Shown here: positions 40,391-46,421 of the stretch, in pieces
Position numbering within the stretch: the stretch's first letter is position 1
Layout: each line of letters begins with the position of its first letter
DNA from: Brucella grignonensis
GTDB lineage: Bacteria; Pseudomonadota; Alphaproteobacteria; Rhizobiales; Rhizobiaceae
Assembly: GCF_002252505.1 (NCBI RefSeq)
Contig: NZ_NNRL01000148.1
Coordinates: 62,001 to 126,000 of the forward strand
DNA length: 64,000 bases
Direction: 5' to 3'
Program-made: the position numbers and the translations under genes
Notes under the pieces: generated by a model
The model's database searches: none
What the model was told of the DNA's origin: nothing
What the model saw: the letters and a program-made list of their open reading frames with translations, nothing else

Positions 40391-40431
40391 AAAACGACAC
40401 CCGTCGCAGGGGAGGCGACGGGTGTCGTTTT
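40391..40431. terminator. Strong bidirectional terminator
   Basis: Seventeen-bp perfect stem (AAAACGACACCCGTCGC / GCGACGGGTGTCGTTTT) with a 7-nt AGGGGAG loop. It ends the MFS gene on plus (T-run after the stem) and, with the A-run at its left side, the DUF1127/RNA transcript on minus. Confidence 0.93.
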
Positions 40432-40560
40432 AGGGTAAGACCGGCTTGGGAGGAGGAGTTCCGGTCTTTATAATCACCGAGGGTAAATGGGAGGAGGAGA
40501 AAACACCCCGGCGATATCTGGAAAACTGTGAGGACCGCACGGTTTGCGGGCGCGGTCCCA
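40432..40560 (-). ncRNA. Cuckoo/CcsR-like anti-Shine-Dalgarno RNA hairpins downstream of DUF1127
   Basis: Two minus-strand hairpins present CCTCCTCCC in their loops. The first is at 40477-40511, stem CCGGGGT/ACCC-T-CGG, loop with CTCCTCCTCCC. The second is at 40437-40468, stem AAGACCGG/CCGGTCTT, loop with the same 11-mer. A third stem (GGACCGC/GCGGTCC, 40532-40558) lies on the gene side, and the terminator at 40391-40431 closes the unit. The arrangement of a DUF1127 gene followed by CCUCCUCCC stem-loops is that of Rhodobacter CcsR/cuckoo RNAs, processed from the DUF1127 transcript under stress. Identity is inferred from motif and synteny. Confidence 0.8.
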
Positions 40561-40655: not shown

Positions 40656-40802
40656 TTAGCGGGCAGCAGCCTTGCGTGCGACGAACGGAATTTCCGAAGG
40701 CATGATGCCGAGGTCGTTCAGTTCACGTGGGCTCAGGCGGCTCAGTTCGTTTACAGTGTTACGGTAACGGCGCCAGTTGTTGTACGAGCGGATCAGGTTC
40801 AT
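40656..40802 (-). CDS. DUF1127 small protein (CcaF1-like)
   Basis: 48-residue protein starting MNLIRSYNNWRRYRNTV and continuing with the hallmark ELSRLSPRELNDLGIMPSEIP. This is the DUF1127 domain, an Arg-rich helical peptide common in alphaproteobacteria. A homologue co-transcribed with CcsR RNAs in Rhodobacter (CcaF1) acts as an RNA-binding, RNA-degradation-modulating factor; related proteins in Agrobacterium affect sRNA and phosphate homeostasis. The ribosome-binding site GGTGAGAG is good. The anti-SD hairpins directly downstream support the same co-transcribed system. Confidence 0.92.
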   Translation of the reverse strand: MNLIRSYNNWRRYRNTVNELSRLSPRELNDLGIMPSEIPFVARKAAAR

Positions 40803-41231
40803 TTCTCTCACCTAGTGAAAAAATCAAATCTCTTTGTTGCCAACAGCATATAGGTGGGTTGCTCTGAAAGTTGCAGAGACAGATTTGCATAGCTGCTGTG
40901 CAATTTAGCCTGTCGATTGCACGTCTTTTGCGCAGCTTGGTCATTATGTGATCACAATTGTCGATCCACATGGGCAAATCACCATATTTGCGGAATTTCA
41001 CGGCGCCAATCTTTAATAATTCATTAATAAATGGTTGGGCCTGCTATAATCAGCATTTCGAACAGAGAGTTCCGTTTCTCAGCGAGAAGAAGCAAAGATT
41101 TTGTCGCAAAAGTTCGGGAATTTGTCGGCTGAAGACAATAATCCACATGACACCCAAATCGTATTGCTTTAAAGGGTGACATGTCGTGTGCAGGCGTGTG
41201 ACTCTTAGACAATCACATTCTTGTACTGTCT
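40803..41231. promoter_or_regulatory. Promoter region of DUF1127 and long leader of gcvT
   Basis: About 430 bp without a gene. On the minus strand, CCTATAT at 40847-40853 precedes DUF1127 by about 45 bp and could be a -10 of an alternative sigma. On the plus strand, TGCTATAAT at 41042-41050 is an extended -10, with no good -35. An inverted repeat (ACATGACACCC / GGGTGACATGT, one mismatch) at 41147-41182 lies between that -10 and the glycine riboswitch. If the -10 is used, the gcv mRNA has about 175 nt of leader before the aptamers. Confidence 0.45.
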
Positions 41232-41410
41232 GTCTGCGGGAGAGCGCTTTTAAAGCCGCCGAAGGGGAAATCGCCCGAAATCTCTCAGGTACAAGGAACC
41301 GCAGACGGGTAAGGCAACTCTGGAAAGTCGGAGGAAACTCCGCGCCGAAGGTGTAAGTATGGCTTTCTATATAGCCATGCGAGTCTCTCAGGCTTGAGAC
41401 AGAGGGGCAC
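41232..41410 (+). promoter_or_regulatory. Tandem glycine riboswitch
   Basis: Two consecutive glycine aptamers. Aptamer 1 (41232-41306) has the P1 stem GTCTGCGG/CCGCAGAC, then GGGAGAGC, CGCCGAAGGGG and CTCTCAGGTACAAGGA. Aptamer 2 (about 41315-41410) has GGAGGAAACTCC, GCGCCGAAGG, CTCTCAGGCTTGAGACAGAGGGG. The conserved GCCGAAGG and CTCTCAGG elements occur once in each. About 48 nt later comes the gcvT start, with a small CCGC/GCGG hairpin between. Glycine binding should turn the glycine cleavage operon on, as in other bacteria. Confidence 0.95.
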
Positions 41411-41457: not shown

Positions 41458-42561
41458 ATGGGCGATACCGCACATTTGAATACCCTGCCTTTGCAGGATC
41501 TGCATGAAGAAGCTGGCGCGCGCTTTGGCGGTTTTGCTGGCTGGAACATGCCGATCACTTATCCGCTCGGCGTGATGAAGGAGCATCTTCATACGCGTGA
41601 GCACGTCGGCCTTTTCGATATTTCGCATATGAAGCTGATAGAAGTTTCGGGCGCAGATGCAATTGCTCTTCTGAGCGAGACCTGTCCGCTTGATCCGTCG
41701 GTTCTGAAAACCGGCCAGTCGAAATACACTTTCTTTCTCAATGACCAAGGCGGTGTTCTTGATGATTTGATCGTCACGCGCCTTGGTGAAGATCGTTTCA
41801 TGGTCGTTGCCAATGCGGGCAACGCCGATGCCGATATTGAGCATCTCAATGAAGCGGCATCCGGTAAAGACGTAAGCGTCAATCCTCTGGATCGCGTTTT
41901 TCTAGCTGTCCAAGGCCCAGAAGCCGAAAGCGTCATTAATGATGCAGGTCTTAAAGGTGCAGAACTTGCTTTCATGAGCGGGTTTGAACCCAAGGCTGGC
42001 TGGTTCATGACCCGTTCGGGCTATACCGGCGAAGATGGTTTTGAAATTGGCTTGCCTACGGATGAGGCGCGCGCGCTTGCAACCAAGCTTCTGGCCGACG
42101 AACGCGTCGAATGGATCGGTCTTGCTGCTCGCGATAGCCTGCGCCTTGAAGCCGGTCTTTGCCTGCATGGTCAGGACATTACGCCGGAAACCGATCCGGT
42201 CTCTGCTGGTCTCACATGGGCAATCACCAAGTCAGTGCGTGAAAAGGCTGCCTTCAATGGTGCCAAAGCCGTTCTGGACGCGATTGCCAAGGGTGCAACC
42301 GCCAAGCGCGTTGGCCTCAAGCCGGAAGGCCGCCAGCCGGTCCGTGGCGGCGCAGAACTTTTCGACGAATCCGGTTTTCAGATCGGCACCGTCACATCGG
42401 GCGGCTTCGGCCCATCCGCAGGTTTCCCGGTTGCCATGGGTTATGTAGAGGCAAGCCTCGCAGTCCCAGGCACTCGCATTTTCGCAGACGTCCGCGGTAA
42501 CAAGGTTCCCGTTGATGTTCATGCACTTCCCTTCACACCGCATCGCTATCGCAAAGGATGA
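41458..42561 (+). CDS. gcvT: Glycine cleavage system T protein (aminomethyltransferase)
   Basis: 367-residue T protein: takes the aminomethyl group from lipoylated H protein, releases ammonia and passes the methylene to tetrahydrofolate. The N-terminal [44 protein letters not shown] and the [32 protein letters not shown] motifs are diagnostic. Asp near DISHM and the C-terminal [22 protein letters not shown] are as expected. It is preceded by the glycine riboswitch. Its stop overlaps an ATG of the gcvH frame (ATGA), although the likely gcvH start lies 9 bp on. Confidence 0.97.
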
Positions 42562-42566
42562 TTTCC

Positions 42567-42935
42567 ATGGCCAATATCCTGTTCACCGAAGATCATGAGT
42601 GGATCAGCGTCGAAGGTGGCGTTGCCACTGTCGGCATCACGATCCACGCACAGGAACAGCTGGGCGACCTCGTATTCGTAGATCTGCCGGAAGTCGGTCG
42701 CACCGTTTCCAAGGGCGAAGGCATTGTCGTTGTTGAATCGGTCAAGGCCGCGTCCGACGTTTATGCTCCGGTCGATGGCGAAGTGGTTGAAGTTAATGAC
42801 GCCGTTTCGAGCGATCCGGCTCTCATCAATCAGGCTGCAGAAGGCGAAGGCTGGCTGTTCAAGCTCAAGCTTTCCGATGAAGGCCAGCTCACCGGCCTGC
42901 TCGACAAGGCTGGTTACGACAAACTCGTAGGATAA
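42567..42935 (+). CDS. gcvH: Glycine cleavage system H protein (lipoyl carrier)
   Basis: 122-residue lipoyl domain protein that shuttles the aminomethyl intermediate between P, T and L proteins. The lipoylation site is Lys60 in [15 protein letters not shown], and [20 protein letters not shown] opens the fold. I use the ATG at 42567 ([12 protein letters not shown]), the canonical beginning, with AAAGGATG ahead; an ATG at 42558 overlaps the gcvT stop. gcvP starts 4 bp after its stop, completing the coupled gcvTHP order. The L protein (lpd) is not in the window. Confidence 0.97.
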
Positions 42936-42939
42936 AGAA

Positions 42940-45753
42940 ATGACGCAACAGGTTCTTCCCTTTGTTGCCCGTCATATCGGGCCAAGACTGGAAGACGAGC
43001 GCGCAATGCTTGCAGCGCTCGGCCTTCCTTCCATGGAAACTCTTATCACCCAGGCGGTTCCAGCATCCATTCGTTTGAATCGCGCGCTCGATTTGCCAGC
43101 CGCTTTGAGCGAACATGCAGCGCTTGCGGAGCTCAATGAAATCATGGCCCGCAATGTGGTGAAGAAGAGCTTCATCGGCGCGGGCTATCATGGTGTGGAA
43201 ACGCCACCCGTCATTCAGCGCAACCTGTTTGAAAATCCAGCCTGGTACACGGCTTACACGCCTTACCAGTCGGAAATCAGCCAGGGCCGTCTGGAGCTTC
43301 TGTTCCACTTCCAAACGCTCGTTGCCGAGCTTTCCGGTCTGCCGGTTGCCTGTGCATCGCTGCTGGATGAAGCAACTGCCGTTGCTGAAGCTGTGGGCGT
43401 TGCTGTTCGTCATCACCGCGATAAGCGCTCGCGCATTCTGCTTGCAGGCGATCTGCATCCGCAGAGCGTGGATGTGATCAACACTCGCGCAGAGCCGCTT
43501 GGCTGGCAGGTTGAAGCGGGAAGTGCTGTTGACGACAACACCGCTGCCGTCATCGTGCCATGGCCGGATACGCGCGGCGTTTATGGTGACTTCACCGCTG
43601 TCATCGCCGATGCAAAGGCCAAGGGCGCTCTGGTGATCGCTGTTGCTGATCCGCTGGCGCTGACCATTCTGGAAGCACCTGCCAAGTGGGGCGCTGATAT
43701 GGCTGTCGGCTCCATGCAACGCTATGGCGTTCCAATGGGCTTTGGTGGTCCACATGCTGCATATCTCGCAGTATCCGAGCCTCTGACGCGCATCATTCCG
43801 GGCCGTATCGTTGGCCAGTCGGTCGATGCACATGGCCGTGCCGCCTACCGTCTGGCTCTTCAGACGCGTGAGCAGCATATCCGCCGCGACAAGGCGACAT
43901 CCAATATCTGCACCGCGCAGGCACTGCTTGCCAATATGGCTGCATCCTTTGCCATCTGGCATGGCCCGGCAGGCCTTCAAGCTATTGCAACGCGTGTTGC
44001 CGGTCTTGCATCTCGCTTCGCAACGGGCCTCAAGGCTGCTGGCGTCGAAATCGCGGGCGATAGCCTGTTCGACACAGTGAGCATCAAGGTTTCCGGCAAG
44101 GCGCAGGCCATTGCAGATGAAGCCGATAAGGGCGGTCGTCTGCTCCGCATCATTGATGCGGATACAGTTGGCGTTACCTTTGACGAAACCTCGACGGAAG
44201 ACGATCTTGCAGCACTTGCCGTTCTGTTTGGTGCAAAGCCAGTCGGAAACGACGATCTGCTGGTTCCGGGCAAAGGACGTGGTGAAGGCTTCCTGACACA
44301 GGACGTGTTCCATTCTCACCGTTCGGAAACCGAGATGATGCGCTTCCTGCGTCGTCTGGCGGACAAGGACTTGGCGCTTGATCGTGCGATGATCCCGCTT
44401 GGCTCCTGCACGATGAAGCTCAATGCGGCAGCAGAAATGATGCCGGTGAGCTGGAACACGGTTGCCAATCTGCATCCGTTTGCGCCTGCCGCACAGACGA
44501 CTGGCTATGCCAAGATGACCTCGGACGTCGAAGCATGGCTTTGCGAAGTCACCGGCTTTGCAGGTGTATCGTTGCAGCCAAATGCTGGTAGTCAGGGCGA
44601 ATATGCGGGTCTTCTCGCAATCCGTCACTATCACCAGTCACGCGGCGAAGGTCATCGCAACATCTGCCTTATTCCATCCTCTGCACATGGCACCAATCCT
44701 GCCAGCGCATCGATGGCAGGCATGAGCGTTGTCGTGGTCAATTGCCGTCCCGATGGCGATATCGACATCGATGATCTGAAAGCCAAGGCTGAGAAGCATC
44801 GCGATAATCTTGCGGCGTTCATGATCACCTATCCGTCGACCTATGGCGTTTTTGAGGAAGGCATCAAGGCTTTCTGCGAGATCGTCCATGATAATGGCGG
44901 TCAGGTCTATTTCGATGGCGCGAACCTCAATGCGCTCGTTGGTCTTGCTCGTCCTTGCGATATTGGTGCTGACGTTTGCCACATGAACCTGCACAAGACC
45001 TTCTGCATTCCACATGGCGGCGGCGGTCCGGGTGTTGGTCCGATTGGTGTGGCCAAGCATCTGGTGCCATATCTGCCGGGTCATGTTGATCTCGGTTCCA
45101 AGCACGCTGTTTCGGCAGCACCGTTCGGCAGTGCATCCATTCTGGTCATTACGTGGATGTATATCCGCATGATGGGCGGCGCGGGTCTCAAGAAGGCAAC
45201 CGAGGCTGCAATCCTCAACGCCAACTATATCGCGCATCGTCTGAAGGACGCTTATTCGATCCTTTACACCGGCGCACATGATCGTGTGGCGCATGAGTGC
45301 ATCGTGGATACGCGTGTTCTCAAGGATAGCGCAGGCATCACCGTAGAAGATGTGGCCAAGCGCCTCATCGACTATGGCTTCCATGCGCCGACCATGTCAT
45401 GGCCGGTTGCCGGAACGCTGATGATTGAGCCAACCGAGTCTGAGCCTAAGTCGGAAATCGACCGTCTTTGCGATGCGATGATTGCCATTGCAGGCGAAGC
45501 ATCGAGGGTTGCCGATGGCGTCTGGCCTGCGGATGACAATCCACTTGCCAATGCGCCGCACACGGCAGGCGATACGCTGGCAACAGAATGGACACATCCT
45601 TACACGCGTGAGGAAGCAGTGTTTCCTGGAATCGCGTTGAGCGGTGATTTTGACATGACGGCGAAATATTGGCCGCCGGTCAGCCGCGTCGACAATGTAG
45701 GTGGTGACAGAAACCTTATCTGTTCTTGCCCGCCGGTTGCATCTTACGGCTGA
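42940..45753 (+). CDS. gcvP: Glycine dehydrogenase (decarboxylating), P protein
   Basis: 937-residue homodimeric-type P protein, a PLP enzyme that decarboxylates glycine and transfers the aminomethyl moiety to GcvH. The N-terminal half begins [17 protein letters not shown], with [32 protein letters not shown]. The C-terminal half has the PLP lysine Lys686 in [18 protein letters not shown] and [16 protein letters not shown]. Length is near the usual 950-960. It ends the gcvTHP operon. Long open frames on the opposite strand across this gene reflect codon bias and are not genes. Confidence 0.98.
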
Positions 45754-46016: not shown

Positions 46017-46128
46017 AAAAAAAGAGCCGGACTAAAAAGTCCGGCTAAGTTATGAAGGTGCCATAAAGGCAAACCTCCAGAGGGGAACACTTACCGCGCG
46101 CAATGGGAGGAGGCGCAAGCGGTAAGCA
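46017..46128 (-). ncRNA. Candidate orphan anti-Shine-Dalgarno sRNA
   Basis: Minus-strand unit of about 110 nt. Near its 5' end is a stem CTTACCGC/GCGGTAAG extended by GCGC/GCGC (46090-46126), presenting CTCCTCCCATT in the loop; the full anti-SD 9-mer CCTCCTCCC is at 46105-46113. At the 3' end is a textbook terminator AGCCGGACT-TTTT-AGTCCGGCT followed by C and T7 (46017-46046). An RpoH-like promoter lies immediately upstream. The loop matches the anti-SD loops downstream of DUF1127 at 40432-40560, so both probably belong to the cuckoo/CcsR-type RNA class. Confidence 0.7.
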
Positions 46129-46134
46129 CTTGTC

Positions 46135-46162
46135 ATATGGACCGGTTGCAACCATTCTTCAA
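46135..46162 (-). promoter_or_regulatory. RpoH (heat-shock sigma)-like promoter of the anti-SD sRNA
   Basis: On the minus strand, TTGAAG (46162-46157) is followed by 16 nt and then CCATAT (46140-46135). This resembles the sigma-32-type CTTGAA...CCATNT pattern, and the expected start site falls at about 46128, just before the anti-SD hairpin. CcsR RNAs of Rhodobacter are RpoH-dependent, which agrees. Visual match only. Confidence 0.5.
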
Positions 46163-46421
46163 CCCCTGAAATACGAAATTTTTGACCATTTCGGAAAATT
46201 CTGAAACTTTTCGGAATTTTGACTGTTTCAGGAAGCTTATTGGTCAATGTTTGTGTCCGTCCGAGCTTTCAGAGTGCTCCAAATCGAAACAATCTCTTGT
46301 TGCAATGCCGAGACGGTTGCGACTCGAAAATCGGATCCCAAATTTTTGGGATGTATTCGCGCTGGCTGATGGCTAGGATGCTGGCGGGAAAATACTGGCA
46401 TCGCTGCGAATGGGAGAGTTC

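What the first reader, a model, noticed from the sequence alone, without database searches (positions are those of the whole stretch)
46017..46163. Orphan anti-Shine-Dalgarno sRNA with RpoH-like promoter
The minus strand has all parts of a free-standing sRNA gene: TTGAAG-N16-CCATAT promoter, a 12-pair interrupted stem presenting CCTCCTCCC, and a T7 terminator 110 nt later. It shares the loop motif with the DUF1127 locus but has no adjacent DUF1127 gene. A heat-shock-sigma promoter in front of an anti-SD loop points to stress-induced translational control or decoying of SD-binding factors. I regard this and 40432-40560 as a two-member RNA family in one window.
Basis: partly seen in the sequence, partly recalled or inferred. 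Interest (0 to 1): 0.75.

Follow-up and report, generated by a model that had tools for sequence, protein, structure and literature searches.

The report
AbcR-family sRNA with heat-shock-type promoter
The finding is a real small-RNA gene, but it belongs to a known family (AbcR) that switches off nutrient-uptake genes; what is useful is that its promoter looks like one read by a heat-shock sigma factor, which suggests how this copy may be controlled.

Summary
On the minus strand at 46017-46163 there is a promoter, a three-hairpin RNA of about 112 nt and a terminator. It is not an orphan: it matches Rfam ar15 (RF02345, AbcR) at 65.3 bits, gathering score 40, and the genome has a second AbcR copy near a vtlR-like gene. 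The locus at 40392-40519 is another family (ar14/NfeR1), so the "two-member family" fails. The genome falls with Ochrobactrum/Brucella species. I infer, from replicon and promoter, that this copy corresponds to B. abortus AbcR1; sequences were not compared. The RpoH-like promoter survives: TTGAA and CATAT stand in all 34 copies of this type in the genus, at fixed spacing, while the 31 vtlR-type copies read lack the pattern. In S. meliloti the RpoH1-dependent AbcR2 is the precedent (PMC8844928). A 2022 review calls the regulator of Brucella abcR1 unknown (PMC9751625), so this is a testable prediction; RpoD cannot be excluded by sequence. Most likely function: stress-induced silencing of transporter mRNAs through two anti-Shine-Dalgarno motifs.

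The parts
46158..46163 (-). -35 element GTTGAA of the RpoH-type promoter (CTTGAA in 6 of 34 genus copies)
   Evidence: TTGAA in 34 of 34 copies
46135..46141 (-). -10 element TCCATAT, 16 bases after the -35
   Evidence: CATAT in 34 of 34 copies
46017..46128 (-). AbcR-family (ar15) sRNA, about 112 nt; start inferred
   Evidence: RF02345 match 46127-46019, 65.3 bits
46089..46127 (-). first stem-loop presenting the anti-SD loop
   Evidence: fold; covariation
46104..46113 (-). CCTCCTCCCA, holding motif M1 (CUCCCA, 46104-46109)
   Evidence: M1 as defined in PMC5461406 (passages)
46073..46088 (-). GTTCCCCTCTGGAGGT, holding motif M2 (GUUCCC, 46083-46088)
   Evidence: M2 as defined in PMC5461406 (passages)
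46017..46046 (-). intrinsic terminator: 9-pair stem and seven Ts

Best explanation
This is the gcvP-linked AbcR (ar15) sRNA of an Ochrobactrum/Brucella-group bacterium, probably the counterpart of B. abortus AbcR1. Shown by sequence: family membership, three-hairpin fold, both published mRNA-binding motifs, a terminator, and an RpoH-type promoter conserved in the genus that the other AbcR copy (vtlR-linked, with a VtlR/LsrB box) lacks. Inferred: a heat-shock sigma factor transcribes it under stress, and the RNA then pairs through M1 and M2 with ribosome-binding sites of transporter and metabolic mRNAs, probably with Hfq, blocking translation and speeding decay. The pair would thus have two inputs, VtlR and RpoH, for one kind of output. 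I put about 0.97 on AbcR identity and about 0.75 on RpoH control.
For: Identity: RF02345, 65.3 bits against 40; second copy over the cut-off at C60:244170, about 5.5 kb from a LysR-type gene that lies next to a reductase gene I read as trxB, the arrangement published for vtlR; M1 and M2 present; the two copies 77% identical (90 of 117 aligned columns), the published Brucella pair over 70%. gcvP lies beside 33 of 34 genus copies (32, one more). In two-contig genome G026 this copy is on the 1.54 Mb contig and the other on the 2.35 Mb one; B. abortus abcR1 is on chromosome II, abcR2 on I and VtlR-controlled. Promoter: TTGAA and CATAT in 34 of 34, spacer mostly variable; the pattern in 0 of 31 vtlR-type copies read; the GCAT-N3-TG-N3-T box in 29 of 31 of those against 1 of 34 here, at another place. 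At most 2 mismatches of 13 to the S. meliloti RpoH1 consensus in 25 of 34 copies, 3 in the other 9, against 0.12% of shuffles at 2 or fewer. In the same genome an HSP20 gene and, 290 bases upstream, secG have sites with 1 mismatch. Exact TTGAA-N16-18-CCATAT: 11 against 2 for the reversed control; 325 against 43 in 35 genomes (summed). One rpoH gene over the family cut-off and a second match below it, 285.7 against 323.1 bits. S. meliloti AbcR2 depends on RpoH1 in reporter and Northern tests (passages).
Against: No expression data. The same site also fits RpoD: RpoD mismatches of 12 against RpoH mismatches of 13 are 3/2 in 19 copies, 4/3 in 9 and 2/1 in 6. Letting C stand at the third -10 position of the RpoH consensus was my own choice. 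Hsp70 and groES genes here have best sites of 2-3 mismatches in 400 bases, not clearly above chance. Of the 11 exact pattern matches only 7 have a frame over 60 aa starting within 300 bases; I scanned 4 of these 7 with Pfam and one is a heat-shock protein. A review table lists S. meliloti AbcR2 under RpoD as well as RpoH1/2. Orthology to B. abortus AbcR1: the review tabulates the same gene orientation for AbcR1 and AbcR2, so that does not discriminate, and gives 116 and 110 nt where here this copy is the shorter by model match, 109 against 114; two papers call the VtlR-driven Brucella copy abcR1. No target was tested.
Confidence: 0.83

Rival explanations
1. AbcR sRNA transcribed by the housekeeping sigma factor; the RpoH resemblance comes from the overlap of the two consensus sequences.
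For: RpoD fits only one mismatch worse at the same site; of 14 LsrB-box copies from named relatives 2 have 2 and 5 have 3 mismatches to RpoH, and of 26 such family copies 1 has 2 and 4 have 3.
Against: The -35 reads TTGAA in 34 of 34 copies; the S. meliloti paralogue with this promoter type needs RpoH1.
Confidence: 0.22
2. One reading: an orphan sRNA forming a two-member family with 40432-40560 that may titrate SD-binding factors.
For: Shared CCTCCTCCC loop.
Against: Different Rfam families and a second AbcR copy in the genome.
Confidence: 0.02
3. A cis-acting element of gcvP rather than a trans-acting sRNA.
For: Beside gcvP in 33 of 34 genus copies.
Against: gcvP ends at 45753, 264 bases from the T run; the G028 copy and the two Pseudochrobactrum copies tested have no gcvP within their loci; family members act in trans.
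Confidence: 0.02

Closest known systems
AbcR1 of Brucella abortus (ar15)
   Same: Same bacterial group, M1 and M2 motifs, second replicon, free-standing, no VtlR box here and no VtlR control there
   Different: I found no statement of its promoter type in the passages read; sequence not compared; tabulated length 116 nt against about 112 here
AbcR2 of Sinorhizobium meliloti (ar15)
   Same: RpoH-type promoter, anti-SD motifs, three hairpins
   Different: In tandem with AbcR1 beside lsrB; in the tree tandem pairs of related genera (S. meliloti itself not included) group apart from this copy
NfeR1 / ar14 (RF02344)
   Same: CCUCCUCCC loop
   Different: Other family with three anti-SD hairpins; in this window at 40392-40519

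Membership tests
ar15 / AbcR (RF02345) | Rfam covariance-model score above gathering | tested here: met
   65.3 against 40 bits, model positions 1-112
ar15 / AbcR (RF02345) | three stem-loops ending in an intrinsic terminator | tested here: met
ar15 / AbcR (RF02345) | M1 CUCCCA and M2 GUUCCC in unpaired regions | tested here: met
   motifs from passages of PMC5461406
ar15 / AbcR (RF02345) | more than one copy per genome in this group | tested here: met
   2 in this genome; 2 or 3 in 34 of 35 genus genomes, none in G022, 72% complete
ar15 / AbcR (RF02345) | Hfq binding and repression of transporter mRNAs | not testable with these tools
   published for relatives
RpoH-dependent promoters | match to CTTGAA-N16-CCTATAT, C allowed at the third -10 position | tested here: met
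   2 of 13 mismatches here; 25 of 34 copies at most 2
RpoH-dependent promoters | transcription lost without RpoH | not testable with these tools
   needs expression data
ar14 / NfeR1 (RF02344) | Rfam match at this locus | tested here: not met
   RF02344 matches only 40392-40519 in the window
DUF1127-linked CCUCCUCCC RNAs (recalled as a kind) | adjacent DUF1127 gene | tested here: not met
   DUF1127 is at 40656-40802; neighbours here are gcvP and a 148-aa frame without Pfam match

The most novel reading that the evidence does not exclude
The AbcR system has repeatedly settled on one copy under LsrB/VtlR and one under RpoH. In the Brucella-Paenochrobactrum-Pseudochrobactrum group the RpoH copy arose from its own lineage's AbcR and sits away from vtlR, independently of the tandem type of Rhizobium relatives: convergent wiring, and the answer to what drives Brucella abcR1. 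A tree holding all 15 RpoH-type RNAs together is rejected (p-AU 0.0005), though concerted evolution of tandem copies could mimic this.
Probability: 0.4. Interest if true: 0.5.

Novelty: already known. Interest (0 to 1): 0.33.

Why it matters
AbcR RNAs set nutrient-uptake gene expression in plant symbionts and in an intracellular pathogen. A review states that the regulator of Brucella abcR1 is not known; a conserved RpoH-type promoter would tie that copy to the heat-shock response and could explain why two near-redundant copies persist: different inputs rather than different targets.

Tried and rejected
Rejected: orphan status, common family with the 40 kb locus, link to DUF1127.

Literature: AbcR1+AbcR2 (31 papers), AbcR+RpoH+promoter, Brucella+abcR1+RpoH2, Ochrobactrum+sRNA+AbcR, CCUCCUCCC+sRNA+DUF1127, NfeR1 or alpha-r14 (listing only), Brucella+AbcR1+sigma factor+promoter+small RNA. 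I saw passages, not whole texts, of ten: PMC8844928, PMC5461406, PMC12772402, PMC3747064, PMC9751625, PMC7486931, PMC3927594, PMC4211561, PMC7143759, PMC3712013. In those passages I saw no statement that Brucella abcR1 has an RpoH promoter; the term RpoH had no occurrence in the main texts of PMC9751625 and PMC12772402.

Rows dropped or limits: of 34 vtlR-type copies 31 were fetched (not G002, G015, G027). One search scored 33 of 34 gcvP-type copies; L067 (one base short in the seed) and the Pseudochrobactrum copies were scored, as were L168, L177 and L180 second copies, whose -10 lay at the edge of or outside the scoring range. The tree had truncated terminators; one search replaces it but some rows run a little past or short of the terminator, 16 of 34 inner branches are open, and the Mesorhizobium second copy (L211, 6 mismatches to RpoH) and the third copies were left out.

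Full report
What is there. The minus strand at 46017-46163 carries GTTGAA-N16-TCCATAT, a stem-loop with CCTCCTCCC in its loop, a second hairpin, and a terminator with seven Ts. The RNA folds at -48.1 kcal/mol, z-score -7.0, 0 of 200 shuffles as good.

What it is. The Rfam scan of the window gives three matches over gathering score: ar14 at 40392-40519 (-), ar15 at 46019-46127 (-) and a glycine riboswitch at 41227-41311 (+). The neighbour on one side is gcvP (Pfam GDC-P), on the other a 148-aa frame without Pfam match. The genome has one other ar15 match over the cut-off. It lies between an aminotransferase and a metallophosphoesterase gene; about 5.5 kb away is a LysR-type gene next to a pyridine-nucleotide reductase gene, which I read as vtlR-trxB after PMC7486931 (passages).

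Who has it. Of 35 genus genomes 34 have ar15 matches; the exception is 72% complete. A seed search of the 80 GcvP loci kept found the sRNA in 6 of 80: four of the genus outside Falsochrobactrum (L138 is labelled only Rhizobiales), Paenochrobactrum and Falsochrobactrum. Beside gcvP in the genus: 33 of 34; not so in G028. Of 199 family genomes, drawn evenly, 146 have a match at E 1e-4.

Promoter. The 34 gcvP-type copies (31 distinct upstream stretches) all have TTGAA, 17 bases, [CA]CATAT, ending 7 bases before the model start; most spacer columns vary. Of the 31 vtlR-type copies read none has the pattern and 29 have the VtlR/LsrB box at -61 to -63. Mismatches to the S. meliloti RpoH1 consensus: 1 in 6, 2 in 19, 3 in 9 of the 34; for the vtlR-type 3 in 2, 4 in 22, 5 in 7 of 31; shuffles reach 2 or fewer in 0.12% and 3 in a further 1.2%. 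The copies are related, so they are not independent trials. Elsewhere, non-vtlR copies have 1 mismatch in Paenochrobactrum (L216), one Phyllobacterium (L218) and three Pseudochrobactrum-type genomes (L220-L222), 2 in Neorhizobium galegae (L212), 3 in another Phyllobacterium (L217), but 6 in Mesorhizobium jarvisii (L211), which does not fit. In 30 family loci, 8 of 25 copies without the box and 1 of 26 with it have at most 2 (second copies of L168, L177 and L180 score 2, 3 and 3 when the range is widened). In the same genome a small heat-shock protein gene has CTTGAA-N16-GCCATAT. RpoD fits one mismatch worse and cannot be ruled out.

Structure. On 32 distinct sequences 99.8% of cells pair; four pairs of the first stem change on both sides and the covariation score exceeds all 500 shuffles, while the count of further pair types does not (14 against a mean of 14.5). 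The second and third stems hardly vary and say little.

History. In a tree of 37 RNAs the rows of Neorhizobium and four unnamed tandem-pair genomes, both types, separate from the rest at 100/100; holding all 15 RpoH-type rows together is rejected, p-AU 0.0005. The Brucella-group RpoH-type rows with Pseudochrobactrum are one side of a branch with weak support, 51/91. Short sequences and gene conversion between tandem copies limit this.

Function. In B. abortus the AbcR pair lowers transporter mRNAs through M1 and M2 (passages of PMC5461406, and PMC9751625); in S. meliloti two anti-SD motifs do so, AbcR1 under LsrB and AbcR2 under RpoH1 (passages of PMC8844928). Naming in print conflicts: PMC5461406 and PMC7486931 put Brucella abcR2 under VtlR, whereas PMC8844928 and PMC7143759 call the VtlR-driven Brucella copy AbcR1. 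The 2022 review says the regulator of abcR1 is not known. My reading is that the copy in this window is that gene's counterpart and is driven by RpoH. The counterpart claim rests on replicon and on the missing VtlR box; orientation does not discriminate and length does not support it.

Verdict.

Noticed in passing
40392-40519: ar14/NfeR1-family sRNA (RF02344, 66.4 bits) just downstream of a DUF1127 gene (40656-40802) on the same strand; its third hairpin lacks the full CCUCCUCCC motif.
   Followed up: partly
41227-41311: Glycine riboswitch (RF00504) upstream of three plus-strand frames (41458-42561, 42558-42935, 42940-45753); the last is gcvP, the first two I read as gcvT and gcvH.
   Followed up: partly
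46175-46198: TTTTCCGAAATGGTCAAAAATTTC upstream of the promoter; CCGAAA occurs in 31 of 34 and [GC]GTCAAAA in 28 of 34 genus copies. Possibly an upstream activating element.
   Followed up: partly
L004, L005, L006, L007, L010, L071: Third ar15 copies in six genus genomes; 2 of 6 have the LsrB box, and the two put in the tree grouped with Neorhizobium rows, which suggests acquisition from outside.
   Followed up: partly
L220, L221, L222: Second AbcR copy of Pseudochrobactrum-type genomes, with CTTGAA-N16-TCCATAT; L220 and L221 show no gcvP, and in L221 the next gene downstream is a solute-binding protein gene.
   Followed up: partly
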